Shown: piece after piece, positions 2,047-36,121 of the stretch
Layout: every line of letters begins with the position of its first letter
Position numbering within the stretch: position 1 is the first letter of the stretch
Assembly: GCA_021797495.1 (NCBI GenBank)
Contig: JAJZZO010000018.1
Coordinates: 1-64,000, forward strand
Direction: 5' to 3'
Length of the DNA: 64,000 nucleotides
DNA from: Microcaldota archaeon
GTDB taxonomy: Archaea; Micrarchaeota; Micrarchaeia; Micrarchaeales; Micrarchaeaceae
Notes under the pieces: model-generated
What the model saw: only the letters and a program-made list of their open reading frames with translations
Database searches by the model: none
What the model was told of the DNA's origin: nothing
Made by a program: the position numbers and the translations under genes

Positions 2047-2997
2047 ATGGGAATTGAAGATTACGTTGCCGTTGCAAAAGACATTTCGTTAGAGTTACTA
2101 GATAGAATAGAGAAAAAACACCTTGTGGATTACAGAGATTCATCTCTGCATTCTTCAAAAATAGAAGCAGTCCAAAAAGCTTACGAAAATTGGATGAAAG
2201 CAATAATTTTAAGTGAAATAATACCTTCTTTGTGGAACTTTAACAATCTTGCAGGTAATGCCTCTAAAGCCGTTAGTGTAATCAATGACCCTAACATTCT
2301 TGGTAGTTTGGATGCTGAAACTATAACGATGATAGAGCTAGTTAAACCTCTAGTTGAGTCACAGGGCTTTTTACAACAGTTTCAAACAAGCTTTATGGAT
2401 CCTGCTCTTAACAAGCTGATTGTTAGTGCATCTAGACCAGCCATAAATGATTTCCTTATGCATAAGCTAAACCACGACCTTCATTGGTTTTTTGATTATA
2501 CTTCTAAGATGCAAGGCTTAGAGCAGCTGCTCCCTCCCGTACTAGATAATCAAGGAAATAGGATAGAGAGAGGATCTGCCTATACTGAATTAGTCAAAGA
2601 TGTTGATGCAAACAAACCGTGCTTGATGCGCATACATGAAAATCAGAAGTTCAAACAGGTTTTGTCGCTATTGAAGCAGAAACCCGATGGCCTCGAAGTT
2701 ACACTTCCTTTGCCCTCTGGTCCAGAATTGCAAAAGAAACTTAATTCGATTAATCATCATCTTCTAATATCTATATACGCAAGTTTATATGCAAGTTTGA
2801 TAGTCAAGTGCCTTAAAAAATACCAAAATGAGCCAAGATTTACTGCTAGTGAGGATGCCAATATGGATATCGAGTTAAAATACATACCTCTTGTAGTAGA
2901 GATATTAGAAAACAACTACAAGCAAGACAGACTTTTCATAGACAAGCTCATACCATATTTATCATCTTATCGAGGGCGTAATTTTTCTAGTCCTTAG
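2047..2997 (+). CDS. Hypothetical helical protein, divergent partner of the nuclease-like gene
   Basis: A 316-residue protein starting at an ATG that follows a 154-base divergent spacer. It is predicted by eye to be largely alpha-helical, without signal peptide, clear membrane segment or metal-binding cysteine pairs. A WFFDY stretch near residue 147 and a leucine/tyrosine-rich helix around residues 240-260 are the most distinctive parts. I recognise no family. It shares AT-rich composition with the neighbouring nuclease-like and SPARTA genes and lies inside the tRNA-linked island, so an accessory or defence-related role is possible. The C-terminus runs into a hairpin-rich non-coding stretch. 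Confidence 0.6.
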   Translation: MGIEDYVAVAKDISLELLDRIEKKHLVDYRDSSLHSSKIEAVQKAYENWMKAIILSEIIPSLWNFNNLAGNASKAVSVINDPNILGSLDAETITMIELVKPLVESQGFLQQFQTSFMDPALNKLIVSASRPAINDFLMHKLNHDLHWFFDYTSKMQGLEQLLPPVLDNQGNRIERGSAYTELVKDVDANKPCLMRIHENQKFKQVLSLLKQKPDGLEVTLPLPSGPELQKKLNSINHHLLISIYASLYASLIVKCLKKYQNEPRFTASEDANMDIELKYIPLVVEILENNYKQDRLFIDKLIPYLSSYRGRNFSSP

Positions 2998-3591
2998 CCC
3001 AGCTCGTTCACAGCTCAAGATGGTCGCTCGTTGCACTTACTTCCTCTTTCGAGCTCACGAGGGGCGCGCTCCAATGAGCTTTAAGCTTGCAACCAAGCAG
3101 TGAAAGGAACCTAGAAACCTCTTAAAAAGAGGTTTCATCGAGAAGTTTTGATGAAACTTTTTCTAAAAGTTTCCCGCTTTTGCCCCCACCCAAAAGCGGG
3201 CAGGTTTCTGATAAAACTCTTTTTCAAAGAGTTTTGCCCGAGCCCGCCGATCGATGCCGAAGGCATCCGCAAGGGCGGGCGAAGGGCAACTAAATCTAAA
3301 TCGGAAACGCTGCACTGAAATCTAATGGTTAGTAGCTTAGACGACAAAATTTTGCAGAGAAATACCTTCCGAGGGAAGCTTACTAAATCTGGATTTTTTG
3401 GCTCAGATTAAGCTTAAATCTGATTAAGAAAAAGCGCAGCAAAAGGACATTCTGCTGACGCAGTTGTTGGTCTTTTGTTATTGGTTAAATTTTAAAAAGA
3501 CGTGAGAGGAGAAGAGCAAGGATGAAAGAAATTAATAAGGCTTATGAAAGGGTATGTAAGGCATTTGAATCGTAGTGAGATAAAATATTTT
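2998..3591. other. 594-base convergent spacer with hairpins and a mini-ORF
   Basis: This spacer separates the 316-residue gene (plus strand) from the Argonaute gene (minus strand), whose 3' ends face each other. Its central part (3115-3280) is an array of hairpins, listed separately. Near the right end, 3522-3575 encodes a 17-residue peptide (MKEINKAYERVCKAFES) with a purine-rich stretch just upstream and an AT-rich box near 3485; it looks like the start of a truncated gene or a chance ORF. No larger coding frame is convincing. Confidence 0.5.
3115..3280. repeat. Tandem array of six perfect hairpins with shared arms
   Basis: Six inverted repeats follow one another: 3115-3123/3127-3135 (9 bp), 3132-3139/3150-3157 (8 bp), 3154-3161/3165-3172 (8 bp), 3173-3182/3191-3200 (10 bp), 3213-3222/3226-3235 (10 bp) and 3242-3248/3274-3280 (7 bp, with an inner 6-bp stem 3253-3258/3262-3267). 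The first three share arms, so they cannot all form at once. Several follow one pattern, GATRAAAC(T)n...A-rich...GTTTxGC. The position between convergent genes fits bidirectional transcription termination, but the number and sharing of arms exceed a plain terminator. Confidence 0.7.
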
Positions 3592-5082
3592 TTATATGTA
3601 AAATTTGAAACTGGGGTTGTTATCTTTAACTGTAGGGTTAGAAACAAGTATTTCACCTACTGAATCAGAGAAGCCTATAGTGACTGGTTGCGAGTCTGCA
3701 AACCTGCATGCGTTATAATTCAGTTTGGTTAAACTTAATATGTCTTTTGATACTTGTTCGATTGAAGCTTCACCATATTGGATATCAATTTTTAAAGGAA
3801 CTGGGACTTCCCATCCGTCATAAGTTTGTAATCGTGGCTTAAAGCCAGTTGCCCACAAATATGCACTTTTTTCATTAATTTCTAGGTATGTACCTCTTAT
3901 AACAGGGTATTCACCTTTTCGAAATAATTTTGTTATGCTATTTAAGCGCACTCTGACACCTACTAATTTAACTCCGTTGGGACATGCTTCGAGGTAGCCC
4001 TCAAATTGATCCTGGTTAATATAGGATCTAGAATGGATAAATATCTCGGTTAATTTTTTACCTTCTAACTCGTTATACGTTTTTAGTATTCCTTTGAGTA
4101 ATCTAGAGGCTGCGTCTTTACTTAACTGAAATTCTTTTTTATCTTCAGAATACCATGGGCCTTCATCACCGAGGAATACAACGCCTTCCCCGGTATTTAA
4201 AAACATTTGAGCGGCGCAACATGCAGTTGTACTGCCTTTTTTGATATCTGTGCGTTTAAAAGATATTCCAATATAACAGACTCCTTCACGGGCAGTCGCA
4301 AGTTTCCAAGGTTTTCCGCCTGCTTTGTAATATAAAGTTGTAGAAAGATTCCACGCTCTATCAGATAGAGGTGTCTTTCCTGTTTTTCCGCGTTCCAAAG
4401 GTAGGTTGGGATTAATAGTAGATTCCCGTATAATTTGGATTGGAATTCCGTATTCCATGGAGCGGGCTTTAATTTGACGACGAAAATCTACTGAAAATCT
4501 ATATTGGTCGATAGACCATTGATTAAATAAACTTGTTTGGTTCATTCTTATTTTACGCGTTCTGCTAGATATGTGTTCGCCCCATGAGTCAGAAACTGGG
4601 GATTTTGGTCTACAATTTTTCCATACTTCATCGGGAACTATACAAATAATAACGTGGAATGTTTCATCGCGCTTCTTGGTTAGGGCGATGCCATTTAGGT
4701 ATTCTTCTACTATTGTAGAGGTTCTTTTGTTAGGATCGGCGTTCCTTGATGCATAAAGAATTTTATCCCTGTCAATTTCGTGAATTAATGTTGGCTTTTC
4801 AGGCCAGTCCGAATCAAAAACTGTTTTAAATCCAGGAAACATTGGCCAAAGCAAAGGATTTTCGATGTCAGAATAGATAGGCTTATTTATAGCCTTAGAC
4901 CACTCTTCAAATGAGGCTATTCCATCTTTCGTTCCAACTACTCCATATATAATATTTTTTGGATGGTATGGCATGTCTGCGCTGTATGGACCGAATAAAA
5001 CTAGCCCATCGTGTGGATCATACAATTTTTGTCCGTACCTAAATTCTAATAATGGCTCATCAAATATTTTAAGATCAGACAT
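3592..5082 (-). CDS. Short prokaryotic Argonaute (MID-PIWI, catalytically inactive), SPARTA subunit
   Basis: A 496-residue protein with the length and layout of short pAgos: no N or PAZ domain, a MID domain (about 100-260) and a PIWI domain (about 260-496). The PIWI core strand reads CYIGIS at 269-274, where catalytic Argonautes have Asp at the last position; the later strand has IHSRS (349-353) instead of an HRDG-type site. The DEDX tetrad is therefore missing, as known for short pAgos, which use a guide to bind DNA targets without cutting. The basic stretch RRQIKARSMEYGIPIQ (201-216) is a likely 5'-guide pocket. Its ATG overlaps the stop of the TIR-APAZ gene (TAATG), so the two are translationally coupled. 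Known SPARTA: the pAgo/TIR-APAZ pair senses invader DNA via RNA guides and triggers NAD(P)+ depletion. Confidence 0.9.
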   Translation of the reverse strand: MSDLKIFDEPLLEFRYGQKLYDPHDGLVLFGPYSADMPYHPKNIIYGVVGTKDGIASFEEWSKAINKPIYSDIENPLLWPMFPGFKTVFDSDWPEKPTLIHEIDRDKILYASRNADPNKRTSTIVEEYLNGIALTKKRDETFHVIICIVPDEVWKNCRPKSPVSDSWGEHISSRTRKIRMNQTSLFNQWSIDQYRFSVDFRRQIKARSMEYGIPIQIIRESTINPNLPLERGKTGKTPLSDRAWNLSTTLYYKAGGKPWKLATAREGVCYIGISFKRTDIKKGSTTACCAAQMFLNTGEGVVFLGDEGPWYSEDKKEFQLSKDAASRLLKGILKTYNELEGKKLTEIFIHSRSYINQDQFEGYLEACPNGVKLVGVRVRLNSITKLFRKGEYPVIRGTYLEINEKSAYLWATGFKPRLQTYDGWEVPVPLKIDIQYGEASIEQVSKDILSLTKLNYNACRFADSQPVTIGFSDSVGEILVSNPTVKDNNPSFKFYI

Positions 5083-6386
5083 TAATCTACACCATGCTTT
5101 TTATTGTCTAGTTTATTTTCATCAATTCCGTATGGGGCTATTTTTTCAATAAATTTTGTTGATAATATTACTTGCGAATCAGGAAAGTCGCCTATAACTA
5201 TATTTTCTGCACCTTGCGACAAAAAGCTTAGGACGGCCAAATGACGATTTAACCAATGGTAATTCCACCAATTTTTACAGATGTTCTTTCTTCTTGCATT
5301 TGATTGTTTTGGGGTTAACGGTAAATCATTCAAATCGGTAATGTGGAGACCCACTCTAAGGCTAGCGTAATAGCCGCCATCTGATTCCTTATATATCTTG
5401 AATTTAGGAGAAAGATAGAAACGGTACTTTGTTAGTTCGCCATTAACGCGGCGAGACCTTTCACCGTAGATATTCACTCTGGATGTTTTGCCATCATATG
5501 TAATAAATTTTATTTTATCTCCGAGAATGATACCTTTAGAAAAATAGATTATTGTACGATCGTTTATGATAATGTCTTTTAGTCCAGAATTATAACATGC
5601 TAGTTGAATGGATTTTAAGAGTAAATTTGAAATTATATTTTTTGTTGGTATGCCATAAATATATTCAGATTCAAGGTTTTCATCTTTTACGAAATGTATA
5701 TAATAATCTCTACTTAATTTATCTGACGGAGAGGTAAAAGAAAGGACAAGCTTTTCTTTATTTCGTGACGTTTTATAGAAAGCCCAGTGGGTTTCTTCTT
5801 CTTTGTCGATGGATATTTCAGTTTTGAATACTTTTAAAGCTTGGGGGATTTTAATGAACGGTATAGAATTGATATATACATTTTCTGGGGTGGAGGTCAG
5901 GAAGTCAGTGTTAAGGTATCCTTTGGCAATTATCTCCTTTCCTCCTGAAATAGGTCTTGGTGCATTAATCGAATTAAGTTTTTTTAATAGTTGACTTAAT
6001 CCTAAAGCCCAACTTTTATAGAATGAGATAAAATTTATGTCGCTTACCATCCAATTTATTTCTGATGGGCTAATACCATCTATATTTAAAGGAATTACAA
6101 AATCATCTTCGTTTCTGGATCTCGCAAGTGTAATGGCGAGAGTGCGCTCCTTCGTTGGATTTTGTTTTGCGTTGGACGTTCGAGACATTACGGCTAAGAA
6201 CCTAAATGTTTTGGATCTTATAGCTTGATCTATATCTTTGGGATAAGATTCACCTCCCAGTTCCTTAAATTTATCACACCAAACCGCGTATCCTTCACAA
6301 GTAAGTTTTTGTGTAAGCCAGATTGCGAATTCTGAATCTTCACTCGCATAACTTATGAAAATATGGTCTCTGACCTCAGCTAACAT
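5082..6386 (-). CDS. TIR-APAZ protein, NADase effector of a SPARTA system
   Basis: A 434-residue protein. Residues 7-145 form a TIR domain: HIFISYASED opens the first strand, WCD follows at 36-38, and E80 in NPTKERTLA is the likely catalytic glutamate of the NAD(P)ase site. Residues about 150-434 match the APAZ region that replaces the Argonaute N domain, with the YYASLRVGLHITDL strand and the NWWNYHWLNRHLAVL helix near the C-terminus. TIR-APAZ proteins pair with short pAgos; on target recognition the complex oligomerises and hydrolyses NAD(P)+, killing or stalling the infected cell. The gene is first in the pair and its stop shares one base with the pAgo start. It is AT-richer than core genes. 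Family call is strong; NADase activity and the catalytic residue are inferred. Confidence 0.88.
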   Translation of the reverse strand: MLAEVRDHIFISYASEDSEFAIWLTQKLTCEGYAVWCDKFKELGGESYPKDIDQAIRSKTFRFLAVMSRTSNAKQNPTKERTLAITLARSRNEDDFVIPLNIDGISPSEINWMVSDINFISFYKSWALGLSQLLKKLNSINAPRPISGGKEIIAKGYLNTDFLTSTPENVYINSIPFIKIPQALKVFKTEISIDKEEETHWAFYKTSRNKEKLVLSFTSPSDKLSRDYYIHFVKDENLESEYIYGIPTKNIISNLLLKSIQLACYNSGLKDIIINDRTIIYFSKGIILGDKIKFITYDGKTSRVNIYGERSRRVNGELTKYRFYLSPKFKIYKESDGGYYASLRVGLHITDLNDLPLTPKQSNARRKNICKNWWNYHWLNRHLAVLSFLSQGAENIVIGDFPDSQVILSTKFIEKIAPYGIDENKLDNKKHGVD

Positions 6387-6521: not shown

Positions 6522-7286
6522 TTAGGTTCTGGAAAGCTTGGCTTTCAGGGCCGCTGCTTGGCTGACGCCAAACGCTCCGTCTATGCCGTCATACAACTGC
6601 TTCTTGTTCGTGTTTATGTATGTCATAGTCATGGCAGGCTGCCTGTGGCGCGCAAACTTGCTAGTCAGGAAAACGTTGCCGTTGTTCTGCTCTGCGAAGT
6701 GCGTTATGGCATAGTGCCTCAGGCTATGCGTGGTCAACCTGTGCAACTTTCTTGAACCCTTGGTTGGTATTGATTCGTCGCTCATGTCATACACCTCATC
6801 TAAGCCTGCCTTGTTTATGAAATCGGTGAACTGATTACGCACGTAACCCTCATCCAAGTAAGGCTCTAAAGTGCGACCTTTGCCCTGTTCCTTGAAGAAC
6901 AGGTATCCAGCCGCGTTCTCTATCGCCTTTGTATTCGCTTTAATGTAATCTAGCGTCTCTTTGAAGAGCGGGGCAGGAATTAGCAGCGTATCCAGAGTCA
7001 TAGCTTTCTCTGTCTTGACGACTAATTCCCTGCTCTCGAACTTTATGTCTTTGATGTTTACCTTTCTAGCTTCGCCCAGGCGCAGGCCAAGCTGCGCCTG
7101 ATACGAGAAAAGAAGGTGGAACTTCGGATTCTTTACGACTCTGAAGAAGGCGCTGATCTCTTGTTCGTCGAAACCCTTGTTTAGAGAGCCGTACTTCGGT
7201 ACACGGCTTCTCTGGAAGCGTTTCTTGAACTGCGCGATTATTATCTTTCGAATTTCTACCAAATCGTGTTTTGGAAGGTAAGGCAA
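6522..7286 (-). CDS. Tyrosine recombinase (phage-type integrase), short N-terminus
   Basis: A 254-residue tyrosine recombinase. The catalytic residues are visible: R69 in LGLRLGEA, K92 or K94, H187-x-x-R190 in THSLRHY, H214 in FARHR and Y223 in MTYINT. Only about 40 residues precede the catalytic domain, so most of the usual core-binding domain is missing. The reading frame opens with TTG at 7286 and a stop lies a few codons upstream, so no longer product is possible without a frameshift. It sits 168 bases from the 3' end of tRNA-Ala, pointing towards it, the classic arrangement for an element integrated at a tRNA 3' end. It probably mobilised, or once mobilised, the island carrying SPARTA. 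Confidence 0.85.
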   Translation of the reverse strand: MPYLPKHDLVEIRKIIIAQFKKRFQRSRVPKYGSLNKGFDEQEISAFFRVVKNPKFHLLFSYQAQLGLRLGEARKVNIKDIKFESRELVVKTEKAMTLDTLLIPAPLFKETLDYIKANTKAIENAAGYLFFKEQGKGRTLEPYLDEGYVRNQFTDFINKAGLDEVYDMSDESIPTKGSRKLHRLTTHSLRHYAITHFAEQNNGNVFLTSKFARHRQPAMTMTYINTNKKQLYDGIDGAFGVSQAAALKAKLSRT

Positions 7287-7385: not shown

Positions 7386-7429
7386 CCCGCTTACTGGTTT
7401 ACAGCCAAAGCTTGCGTCGGGTTCTTGAT

Positions 7430-7452
7430 AAAACTTCTTTCCAAGAAGTTTT
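7430..7452. repeat. Perfect 10-bp hairpin abutting the tRNA-Ala 3' end
   Basis: AAAACTTCTT (7430-7439) pairs with AAGAAGTTTT (7443-7452) across a three-base loop. It ends one base before the tRNA 3' end (7454), so on the minus strand it would fold immediately after the tRNA and may end its transcript. It resembles the 3213-3235 hairpin, including the preceding TGAT, with paired changes in both arms. Confidence 0.6.
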
Positions 7453-7453
7453 G

Positions 7454-7525
7454 TGGACTCTGCGGGATTCGCACCCGCGACCCCCCGCTTGCAAAGCGGG
7501 TGCTCTACTACTGAGCCAAGAGCCC
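7454..7525 (-). tRNA. tRNA-Ala(TGC)
   Basis: The minus strand folds into a 72-base cloverleaf: acceptor GGGCTCT/AGAGTCC, D-arm GCTC/GAGC, anticodon stem CCCGC/GCGGG around TTTGCAA, T-arm GCGGG/CCCGC. The anticodon is TGC, reading GCA. The acceptor carries the G3-U70 wobble pair, the alanine identity element, and A73. No intron and no encoded CCA. An integrase gene lies just beyond its 3' end, marking it as the probable integration target of the SPARTA island. Confidence 0.97.
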
Positions 7526-33895: not shown

Positions 33896-36121
33896 TTATT
33901 CCCTGCGCCTTTGCCTTGCAGTGGAACTCTGGCTTATGGGCATCGTGAAATAAAACCTGCTCCCTTTCCCAAGCGTGGAATCGAATTTTATCCTTCCCCT
34001 GTGCAAGTCGACTATCTCCTTTGTTATGGCCAAGCCAAGACCGGTTCCGGTGCCATCGGGTTTTACCAGCCCCTTCTTCGACGCCTGGTAAAATTTCTTG
34101 AATATCTTTTTCTTGTCGTCATCGCTTATACCTATGCCTGTGTCTATCACTTCGCACATCACGCTGCGCTTGCTGAACTTCGATATATGCACCGTTATCT
34201 TGCCCGATTCAGTGAACTTCAATGAATTGCCTATAAGGTTTACGAATACCTGTATGAGCCTGTTTGGGTCTGCTGTTATGGCTGGCACGTCGTAATCCAC
34301 GTTCCAGGCGAAGGCAAGCCCCTTGTTCTTTGCATTCTCTTCAAGGGCCTTTATGCTCGGGTTGTTCGCAAGCTCTGAAAGGTTGACCTCTTTCAGGTCA
34401 AGCTTCACTTTGTTGGCCTCGAGTTTCGCGGCATCGAGCACTTGGGTGATTATCAGCATCAGCCTGTCTGATTCGTCAAGTATCGTATCCATGTACTCTT
34501 TCTGGTCGGCGTTGAGCTGCCCGAACTCGCCTTCGTGAAGCAGTTTTGCAAAGCCCTTGATGTTGGTCAGCGGCGTCTTGAGCTCGTGCGATATGTTGTA
34601 TATGAATTGGGATTTGAGTTCGCTCGCCATCCTGAAATTCTTCGCCTGCCCCTCGAGCTTCCTGTTCAGCATTTCCATGTCGTTTATGGTGCGCTTGGTC
34701 TGGAGCTCCTTTATCATTATCGCATAAAAATACGATTCGCCGTCGAAAAACAACCTCAGAGAATGGGTGCCGGGCAACATCTCCGAATTGCTTTTCTTGA
34801 GCTCCACATAGCTCCCGTCGACCTTGCCGCCGCTCTTCACGTAGGCAATATCCCTGTCAAGCGTATCTTCCTCGGAATAAATGGTCCGTATGTCCTTCCC
34901 CAGCAGCTGTTCCTTTTTGTACCCGAGGAGCTGCTCAGCCGGAAGGTTCGCATCGGTTATGGTTCCGTTCTGGTCCACTATGAGCGTTATGTCGGAAGTG
35001 ACATCTATGAAATCTTTCAGGTTGCTTGAAAGCATTTTTACCGATTCCTCGAGTTCGGCGCTAAGCATAAGACACAGGTAGCCGAAAGCGGTTTTCGACA
35101 GCGACATGTAAACCTTTTCCTTGTAGCCCCCGATAGATACCTCCGTGCTGACCAACACTTTTCCCCTGCTTTTCAGGGCTGACTGCAATGCGGAGTAATC
35201 GGATGTCGGCATCAGATCGCCAAGCTTGAAGTTCCTTATGTCCAAGCTTTCTATGTTGTCCCATTTGCCAAGCCTTCCAAAGCCCCCGATTACCCTGAAT
35301 TCTCCATCTAAGCTCAGTGCCACTATCTTGCCGGTGTTGTTTATGCCGTCGCTTACGCCCTCTATCAGCTCCCTGTCGCTCGTATCAACAAGCGACACGT
35401 ACACCGTACTGCTGTTTATGCTGGAGGCGTGTATCTCGAAAGAACGCAATTCTCCTGATACCTTAATGAGCTTTTTTACCGGCACGTCGGGTTGCATGCC
35501 GCGCAATTCCTTGAAATCGATGCCTATGATCTGTTTCGCTTCAGGGCTGTTTGACTGGCTTATCCTGAAAAGCGCCATCGCTTTCTTGTTTGCCTTTATC
35601 ACCTTTCCCGACTGCGATATGAGCATGTTCGGGGTGGCGTTACCGAATGCTGAATCGAAATAGGCCGCGAGGTTCCTGCTTCTCATGGCCTCGCTGGCGT
35701 AGCTTATGGTCAGGCCGATGAAGGCAGCGCCTATGGACAGGCTGTTCAGCATCTCCTTGCTGAACCTGTTCTCCATCTTCGAAAGAAGTTCAAGCACGCC
35801 GATTATGCGCCCGCCAACCATGAGCGGCAGTATGGCGCAGCTGGAATAGCCTAGGTTCCTGTAATTTATCAACTGCGGAAATTCCGAATACTCGCTCAGC
35901 TGGTTGTCTATATAAACCTTTTTCGTATTTGCAACATAACCGTAAATGCCGCCGTTTTCTTCTCCCAGCGCTTCGGTTTTCTTCAGGTTCGCGGCATCGA
36001 TGCCGAAAACCTCCTTAACGCTCTTCGCAAATCCCTCTACGGTTTCCTTTTCGCCGTACTGCGACATCGCAAGCGGCAGCAGGTCGTACATAAACTTCTC
36101 AAGCACTATGTTTTCAGCCAT
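33896..36121 (-). CDS. Soluble sensor histidine kinase (GAF-PAS-PAS-HisKA-HATPase)
   Basis: 741 residues with no transmembrane segment, so cytosolic. Domains in order: GAF (about 20-145), PAS (155-260), a PAS-like stretch (265-365), PAS (370-475), HisKA with H512 in SHELKTPLTN, and HATPase (600-735) with NLIGNSLKF (N box), DTGIGI (G1) and GTGLGLAI (G2). It should autophosphorylate H512 and pass the phosphate to a receiver Asp; the response regulator 1.1 kb downstream is the obvious candidate. The input signal is unknown. Confidence 0.92.
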   Translation of the reverse strand: MAENIVLEKFMYDLLPLAMSQYGEKETVEGFAKSVKEVFGIDAANLKKTEALGEENGGIYGYVANTKKVYIDNQLSEYSEFPQLINYRNLGYSSCAILPLMVGGRIIGVLELLSKMENRFSKEMLNSLSIGAAFIGLTISYASEAMRSRNLAAYFDSAFGNATPNMLISQSGKVIKANKKAMALFRISQSNSPEAKQIIGIDFKELRGMQPDVPVKKLIKVSGELRSFEIHASSINSSTVYVSLVDTSDRELIEGVSDGINNTGKIVALSLDGEFRVIGGFGRLGKWDNIESLDIRNFKLGDLMPTSDYSALQSALKSRGKVLVSTEVSIGGYKEKVYMSLSKTAFGYLCLMLSAELEESVKMLSSNLKDFIDVTSDITLIVDQNGTITDANLPAEQLLGYKKEQLLGKDIRTIYSEEDTLDRDIAYVKSGGKVDGSYVELKKSNSEMLPGTHSLRLFFDGESYFYAIMIKELQTKRTINDMEMLNRKLEGQAKNFRMASELKSQFIYNISHELKTPLTNIKGFAKLLHEGEFGQLNADQKEYMDTILDESDRLMLIITQVLDAAKLEANKVKLDLKEVNLSELANNPSIKALEENAKNKGLAFAWNVDYDVPAITADPNRLIQVFVNLIGNSLKFTESGKITVHISKFSKRSVMCEVIDTGIGISDDDKKKIFKKFYQASKKGLVKPDGTGTGLGLAITKEIVDLHRGRIKFDSTLGKGSRFYFTMPISQSSTARQRRRE

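What the first reader, a model, noticed from the sequence alone, without database searches (positions are those of the whole stretch)
3115..3280. Six chained hairpins with overlapping, mutually exclusive arms
Within 166 bases there are six perfect inverted repeats. Neighbouring ones share arms (GTTT at 3132-3135, AAAC at 3154-3157), so alternative folds compete, and several share a GATRAAAC...GTTT pattern. This is more elaborate than a terminator between convergent genes and may be a structured RNA, a MITE-like array or a recombination target.
Basis: seen in the sequence. Interest (0 to 1): 0.55.

Follow-up and report, generated by a model that had tools for sequence, protein, structure and literature searches.

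The report
Hairpin hub of an archaeal island
The chained hairpins are part of a folded, conserved DNA region carried by mobile gene islands in tiny archaea (Micrarchaeota), into which three copies of a roaming 28-letter palindrome have inserted, the same palindrome that forms many tRNA introns in these organisms.

Summary
In detail: five perfect hairpins with arms of 8 or more lie in 3114-3235, against a mean of 0.1 in 1000 shuffles, plus a GC-rich sixth. They are not one thing. Three (3114-3136, 3153-3173, 3213-3235) are copies of a 28-nt unit: a 9-10 bp palindrome with a one-sided tag, ATCAAAA. The hairpin at 3132-3157 is only the tail-to-tail junction of two units. The other two (3173-3200 and 3236-3287) belong to a conserved ~450-nt hairpin region (about 2990-3430) that recurs in the window's order (56 of 164 genomes). 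That region sits inside islands integrated next to tRNA genes, with a tyrosine recombinase; the window's island carries a short-Argonaute/TIR (SPARTA-type) pair. The helices covary strongly but show no RNA-strand preference, unlike control tRNAs, so folding is probably selected in DNA. The unit is found in 103 of 301 genomes of the phylum sample. It occurs inside tRNA introns, always in sense orientation, and 18 of 25 such introns can form the splicing motif. I found no earlier report in my searches. Function is inferred: recombination or replication control for the region, REP-like spread for the unit, with no mobilising enzyme identified.

The parts
2992..3102 (+). Module A of the conserved hairpin region (three hairpins; H2 and H3 with CAAT/CAAC loops)
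   Evidence: R2 covariance model 39.4 bits, E 2e-9; covariation in the family
3104..3112 (+). AAGGAACCT word that follows module A and also precedes it in tandem copies
   Evidence: direct reading; compare L098, L112, L117
3112..3146 (+). Unit U1: 10-bp palindrome 3114-3136 plus tail ATCGAGAAG
   Evidence: R1 20.2 bits; homologous one-unit insertion in L050 and L037
3132..3157 (.).
3144..3175 (-). Unit U2: palindrome 3153-3173 plus tail ATCAAAA (3146-3152)
   Evidence: R1 50.8 bits, E 4e-9; identical palindrome at G000:C1:25514
3173..3200 (.). H4: CCCGCTTTTG-CCCCCACC-CAAAAGCGGG, belongs to the region; loop is G-rich in some relatives and C-rich in others
3204..3237 (-). Unit U3: palindrome 3213-3235 plus tail ATCAGAAACC
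   Evidence: R1 25.5 bits; unit in the same place and orientation in L037 and L050
3236..3287 (.). GC-rich hairpin of the region (AGCCCGCC ... GGCGGGCG), conserved with L037 and L050
3288..3430 (+). Module B, degenerate in the window: ACTAAATCT at 3289 and 3382 and imperfect inverted copies
   Evidence: D5; homology of 3071-3430 to L050, E 1.1e-17; layout in relatives
7421..7454 (-). Unit U4, directly 3' of tRNA-Ala
   Evidence: R1 24.1 bits; absent at the same place in L086
7453..7525 (-). tRNA-Ala(TGC), presumed integration site
   Evidence: same tRNA and recombinase type in L086, where the tRNA 3' part is duplicated
6522..7286 (-). Tyrosine recombinase of the island
   Evidence: PF00589 41.4 bits; homologues in 89 of 164 order genomes
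5082..6386 (-). TIR protein of the short-Argonaute pair (cargo)
   Evidence: PADLOC Aga_TIR 226 bits
3592..5082 (-). Short prokaryotic Argonaute (cargo)
   Evidence: PADLOC pAgo_I 594 bits

Best explanation
The chain is a composite in a tRNA-Ala-linked mobile island of a Micrarchaeota archaeon. Its backbone is a conserved ~450-nt hairpin region (about 2990-3430) that such islands carry between recombinase and cargo. I infer that it acts as folded or cruciform DNA: a cis-acting site for recombination and cargo exchange, and perhaps replication, of the island. Three copies of a tagged 28-nt palindrome (REP-like) have inserted into it and make the chained, mutually exclusive hairpins. The same unit, landing in sense orientation in tRNA genes, becomes a spliceable intron. 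Shown: homology, copy contexts, covariation, recombinase and tRNA linkage, att duplications in relatives, cargo sharing, horizontal transfer. Inferred: DNA-level folding, binding by the recombinase, and the unit's mobility.
For: Region: module A in 56 of 164 genomes of the order, up to 10 copies in one; at a stricter cut-off 50 of 301 in the phylum sample, all within the order. Covariation on 24 copies: 90.9% of cells paired, 58 double-changed cells against 17.4 shuffled, 0 of 500. 46 of 93 listed sites lie 0.37-3.5 kb from a recombinase hit. A tRNA lies just upstream of it on the same strand in 16 of 19 loci. Duplicated tRNA 3' parts 3.4-7.2 kb away in 7 of 16 loci. CGACGACAA (1 mismatch or fewer) lies 10-13 nt after the tRNA in 15 of 22 rows and recurs inverted in some module B centres. 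Shared cargo blocks end at the region although the other side differs: L081/L208 2863 bp at 91.8%, L086/L212 548 bp at 88.5%. L194 and L199, from two families, share 3868 bp at 99.95% with different flanks on one side. DNA rather than RNA: 4 G-T and 2 A-C mismatches beside 523 Watson-Crick pairs; no strand preference, 18 of 30, p 0.43, while tRNAs give 32 of 39, p 5e-5, and 11 G-T against 0 A-C. Units: 73 of 100 relatives at E 1, 103 of 301 at E 0.001. In the palindrome-only search every copy whose flanks could be read carried the ATCA tag, which was not in the pattern. Contexts of 84 copies: 23 inside tRNA genes, all sense; 4 at 16S and 3 at 23S 3' ends. 18 of 25 unit introns form a 4-bp central splicing helix against 13.6% when introns are swapped.
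Against: 47 of 93 sites have no recombinase hit within 4 kb, partly because contigs end. The 9-nt words of module B do not follow the recombinase type: the window and L086 enzymes are about 84% identical but their words differ. The window has no second att copy (the contig starts at base 1), and its Argonaute pair lies on the recombinase side of the region. On alignment A4 the G-T and A-C counts (13 and 16) are blurred by misaligned columns. Perfect arms could also come from recent template switching without any function. Lone look-alike hairpins occur in two phage contigs, so single copies can arise by convergence. No transposase tracks the unit.
Confidence: 0.55

Rival explanations
1. The region is a large structured non-coding RNA of the island, for example a regulatory or guide-like RNA, and the units are decorations of its stems.
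For: Strong covariation; low folding energy on both strands; conserved CAAC-type loops in module A.
Against: No Rfam match at gathering score; hardly any G-U; no strand preference although control tRNAs show one; TATA-like hexamers upstream at no fixed distance and absent in 12 of 30 copies; units occur in both orientations within the region.
Confidence: 0.2
2. An integron-like cassette hub built on a non-IntI recombinase: module A works as a folded single-strand recombination site and cargo genes are swapped there.
For: Hairpins kept as DNA-like folds; tandem or paired module A copies about 1 kb apart around one gene (L083; G025 C12); the same cargo beside different recombinases and tRNAs, with shared stretches ending at the region.
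Against: The recombinase scores 23 bits against the integron model cut-off of 265. Only pairs, no long arrays, were seen. Cassette circles not observed. Homologous recombination between regions could give the same pattern.
Confidence: 0.15
3. The units spread at the RNA level, by reverse splicing of the tRNA intron and copying back into DNA, and not as DNA palindromes.
For: Sense orientation in all 23 tRNA copies and in the 7 copies at rRNA 3' ends; intron length close to unit length and splicing motif in 18 of 25.
Against: Copies inside the island region lie in both orientations. Tandem intergenic copies in one genus and copies in pilin coding sequence in two reading frames do not look like spliced RNAs. 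No reverse transcriptase link was tested.
Confidence: 0.2
4. An ordinary terminator cluster between the convergent genes 2047-2997 (+) and 3592-5082 (-).
For: It lies between convergent genes; several stems are followed by short T runs.
Against: The same units lie inside tRNA genes and at 16S 3' ends, where transcription must continue. In relatives the region usually lies beside the start, not the end, of the left gene. Its length and conservation far exceed a terminator.
Confidence: 0.05

Closest known systems
REP elements (repetitive extragenic palindromes, e.g. GTAG-tagged REPs; PMC3733652, passages read)
   Same: 20-40 bp palindrome with a conserved tag on one side, dispersed, single copies and tail-to-tail dimers, some inside genes
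   Different: Archaeal; tag ATCAAAA; often inside tRNA introns; no consistent tyrosine-transposase partner
Transposing tRNA introns of Thermoproteales (Fujishima 2010, as described in PMC4090602, passages read)
   Same: Similar introns in different tRNAs at canonical and other positions, explained there by intron transposition of unknown mechanism
   Different: Here the intron core is also found outside RNA genes: in islands, coding sequence, at rRNA ends and in intergenic repeats
Rickettsia palindromic elements (recalled; only listing lines seen)
   Same: Palindromes inserted in frame in coding genes and in RNA genes (recalled)
   Different: Rickettsial ones are longer (recalled); no sequence comparison was made
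Integrons, including archaeal ones (PMC9668308, passages read)
   Same: Tyrosine recombinase, folded site, exchange of cargo beside the site
   Different: Recombinase is not IntI; the islands sit at tRNA genes; no long arrays; Micrarchaeota not mentioned in the main text of that paper
tRNA-integrated elements of archaea (review PMC8371274, passages read)
   Same: Tyrosine recombinase next to a tRNA, duplicated tRNA 3' part
   Different: Carries the hairpin region; no replication or virion gene seen among the few cargo genes examined
lambda attP arm-site architecture (recalled)
   Same: Five short repeated words around a central site
   Different: The word varies between copies and does not follow the recombinase type

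Membership tests
Integron | Integron integrase IntI | tested here: not met
   TIGR02249 at 23 bits, cut-off 265; the other two tested score lower
Integron | Array of two or more attC sites less than 4 kb apart | tested here: inconclusive
   Module A pairs about 0.8-1 kb apart in G070 and G025; no longer arrays; attC models not available
REP / RAYT system | Short palindrome with one-sided tag, dispersed in the genome | tested here: met
REP / RAYT system | Associated HUH tyrosine transposase | tested here: not met
   Y1_Tnp in 6 of 10 unit genomes and absent in G065, which has 57 unit matches; no strong unit next to 4 such loci
Bulge-helix-bulge tRNA intron (units inside tRNAs) | 4-bp central helix between exon and intron 3' part | tested here: met
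   18 of 25 rows (24 loci) against 13.6% in swapped controls
Bulge-helix-bulge tRNA intron (units inside tRNAs) | Excision in the cell | not testable with these tools
   needs RNA data
tRNA-integrated mobile element (family of islands) | Recombinase beside a tRNA, with duplicated tRNA 3' end | tested here: met
   16 of 19 and 7 of 16 loci
tRNA-integrated mobile element (the window's own copy) | Second att copy | tested here: inconclusive
   none in the window; the contig begins at base 1
Known RNA family | Rfam match at gathering score | tested here: not met
SPARTA-type defence pair (cargo) | Adjacent short Argonaute and TIR-APAZ-like protein | tested here: met
   activity and catalytic residues not tested

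The most novel reading that the evidence does not exclude
The 28-nt tagged palindrome is a mobile DNA element that turns into a spliceable intron when it lands in a tRNA gene. It would be the physical vehicle of archaeal tRNA-intron transposition, whose mechanism a 2014 review calls unknown, and its copies in the island's hairpin region would be insertions of the same element caught outside RNA genes.
Probability: 0.4. Interest if true: 0.78.

Novelty: new variant of a known kind. Interest (0 to 1): 0.62.

Why it matters
If the unit really moves as DNA and becomes a tRNA intron on landing, the origin of new archaeal tRNA introns becomes directly testable by comparing filled and empty sites and by mobility assays. 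The hairpin region marks a family of small Micrarchaeota islands that carry defence genes (short Argonaute/TIR, restriction-modification, Abi) and metal or redox genes between families. This gives a search tag for mobile DNA in a group with few described mobile elements in the papers I found.

Tried and rejected
Terminator cluster: rejected, because units also lie inside tRNAs and at 16S 3' ends. Large RNA: tested by Rfam, mismatch types and strand energy with a tRNA control; disfavoured. Integron proper: rejected by the recombinase model. RAYT mobilisation: not supported. Recombinase arm sites as the meaning of the 9-nt words: considered, but the words do not follow the recombinase type. Viral carriers: no recombinase relative in IMG/VR; the single element-pattern hit (L191) is chance; two unit-pattern hits are lone intergenic hairpins in phage contigs. 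Weak module A hit at window 35626-35709 lies within what reads as coding sequence and is taken as chance. Two bacterial hits (L114, L119) taken as chance. L211 tRNA-Pro with a 79-nt intron looks spurious. Structure prediction was not used.

Rows dropped: from 92 unit hits, 8 opposite-strand or self-overlap hits were dropped, leaving 84. The distances use only the hits printed (93 and about 155). One search has one duplicate contig among 22 rows (L112 = L213). One search counts one tRNA twice. An earlier count gave 16 of 22 for the CGACGACAA count; the recount is 15 of 22, and 15 is used here.

Full report
What was checked. The six hairpins are there and exceed chance: five perfect arms of 8 or more in 176 bp against a mean of 0.105 and a maximum of 4 in 1000 dinucleotide shuffles, and no other 176-bp stretch of the 64-kb window holds more than one. 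Both strands fold far better than shuffles, z -7.25 and -5.57.

Where it lies. The window is the first 64 kb of a contig of a 0.96-Mb genome. Seventeen of the 20 named matches to a conserved piece of the region are Micrarchaeota contigs; one is labelled Marsarchaeota (L111) and two are chance bacterial hits. The hairpins lie between two convergent genes, 2047-2997 (+, unknown) and a short Argonaute at 3592-5082 (-). A TIR partner, a tyrosine recombinase and tRNA-Ala(TGC) follow on the same strand.

Taking the chain apart: the units. The hairpin 3153-3173, searched as a palindrome only, occurs in 6 of 60 genomes, with 0 matches for the reversed control. Every copy whose flanks could be read carries the same tag on one side, ATCA, mostly ATCAAAA, which was not part of the pattern. 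A covariance model of the 28-nt unit (R1) finds it in 73 of 100 relatives at E 1 and in 103 of 301 genomes of the phylum sample at E 0.001. In the window it finds 3112-3146 (+), 3144-3175 (-), 3204-3237 (-) and 7421-7454 (-). So three of the six hairpins are units, and the 3132-3157 hairpin is the tail-to-tail junction of two of them.

What the units do elsewhere. Of 84 unit copies in 73 loci, 23 lie inside tRNA genes by ARAGORN, all in sense orientation. Four lie at the 16S 3' end and three at the 23S 3' end, again sense (rRNAs confirmed). Others lie in the start of pilin genes, read in two different frames (L038 and L046), and in tandem intergenic copies in one genus. In other families of the class the same unit and tag recur; of 20 loci looked at, ARAGORN places three inside tRNAs, and two more (L229, L232) look by eye like T-loop and D-loop insertions. 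In the window's own genome one copy is the intron of tRNA-Thr(TGT). Of 25 unit introns, 18 form a perfect 4-bp central helix of the bulge-helix-bulge motif, against 13.6% when introns are swapped between different tRNAs. The endonuclease of a Micrarchaeota is reported to have broad substrate specificity (PMC12397907, passages). A 2014 review says tRNA introns of Thermoproteales transposed by a mechanism still unknown (PMC4090602, passages). The unit matches the description of tagged REP palindromes (PMC3733652, passages), but the expected transposase family is absent from 4 of 10 unit genomes, including one with 57 matches.

Taking the chain apart: the host region. Window 3071-3430 is homologous to non-coding stretches in other genomes of the family. 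In most relatives the region has no units at all (L081-L096). The hairpin 3173-3200 (H4) and the GC-rich hairpin 3236-3287 belong to it. Its 5' module (A) has three hairpins; on 24 copies 90.9% of pair cells are standard pairs, with 58 double-changed cells against 17.4 (sd 3.2) in shuffles, 0 of 500. Module A is found in 56 of 164 genomes of the order and, at E 1e-4, in 50 of 301 of the phylum sample, all in the order. The 3' module (B) holds four or more copies of one 8-mer on either strand in 17 of 27 records examined. The layout is typically two forward, one forward, two reverse, and the word differs between copies. In the window module B is degenerate.

The region is part of mobile islands. 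A homologue of the window's recombinase is in 14 of the 20 loci L081-L100; it is split by an inserted IS110-like gene in L082 and L095 (the IS110 name is my own recognition of the sequence). Over the order, 46 of 93 listed module A sites lie 0.37-3.5 kb from a recombinase hit. A tRNA gene lies just upstream of the recombinase on the same strand in 16 of 19 loci: Leu, Glu, Pro, Ala, Val. The tRNA 3' part is repeated 3.4-7.2 kb away in 7 of 16 loci, so the region lies inside the island and not at its ends. Cargo includes a short Argonaute with a TIR partner (window), restriction-modification (L082, L085, L090), AbiU-like and AbiE-like genes, a flavin disulphide reductase and a cupredoxin. L194 (same genus as the window) and L199 (another family) share 3868 bp at 99.95%; one end is a junction beside a tRNA end with different flanks, and the other is the end of a contig. 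Cargo blocks that end at the region are shared between islands with different right sides.

DNA or RNA. In hairpins of 26 copies there are 523 Watson-Crick pairs with 4 G-T and 2 A-C mismatches. The two strands are equally stable, 18 of 30 copies, p 0.43. The same energy test on 39 tRNAs from these genomes gives 32 of 39, p 5e-5, and their acceptor stems show 11 G-T and no A-C. The H4 loop is G-rich in some copies and C-rich in others, as if the hairpin flips. I therefore favour folding at the DNA level. The word CGACGACAA (1 mismatch or fewer) stands 10-13 nt after the tRNA in 15 of 22 rows and recurs as an inverted pair about 28 nt apart in several module B centres. This is a candidate recombinase site shared by island ends and region.

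What is uncertain. The window copy has no second att repeat in view, and its Argonaute pair lies on the recombinase side. Half of the module A sites have no recombinase nearby. The 9-nt words do not follow the recombinase type. The genomes are mostly metagenome assemblies by their titles, and many contigs are short. No transcription, binding or recombination data exist here. My literature searches cover only the held open-access library; within it I found no report of this region or of this unit.

Conclusion. The finding is real and is two nested things: a conserved DNA-hairpin region of Micrarchaeota islands, and copies of a REP-like unit that also forms tRNA introns.

Noticed in passing
window 3592-6386: Short Argonaute and TIR protein pair (SPARTA-type) as island cargo in a Micrarchaeota genome.
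   Followed up: partly
L194:5363-9230 and L199:4459-8326: 3868 bp at 99.95% identity between genomes of two families, with cupredoxin cargo: recent transfer of an island.
   Followed up: partly
L082, L095: Recombinase gene interrupted by an IS110-like transposase gene with a short overlap of the two halves.
   Followed up: no
L028, L038, L046, L051, L151, L166, L172: Unit inserted in frame at the start of pilin-like genes, next to repeated QSAMEY signal-peptide codons, in more than one reading frame.
   Followed up: partly
L002:1500-2942 (own genome C1): Unit, PIN/antitoxin-like genes, a partial tRNA-Glu copy and a full tRNA-Glu: probably a remnant of another tRNA island.
   Followed up: no
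L195:4950-5130: A second set of hairpins nested inside a unit hairpin in a decayed region of the window's genus.
   Followed up: no
L201:4959-5164: Module A directly joined to a unit and a tRNA-Ala, as if the part between two units had been deleted.
   Followed up: no
L111: Region and recombinase (43% identity) on a contig labelled Marsarchaeota; mis-binning or transfer to another archaeon.
   Followed up: no
L014, L025, L033: Units next to repeated tRNA-Asp 3'-half-like sequences; a split or trans-spliced tRNA was considered but not tested.
   Followed up: no
L192:4383-4410, L193:4355-4382: Exact unit-like hairpins with tag between genes of phage contigs, probably convergent.
   Followed up: partly
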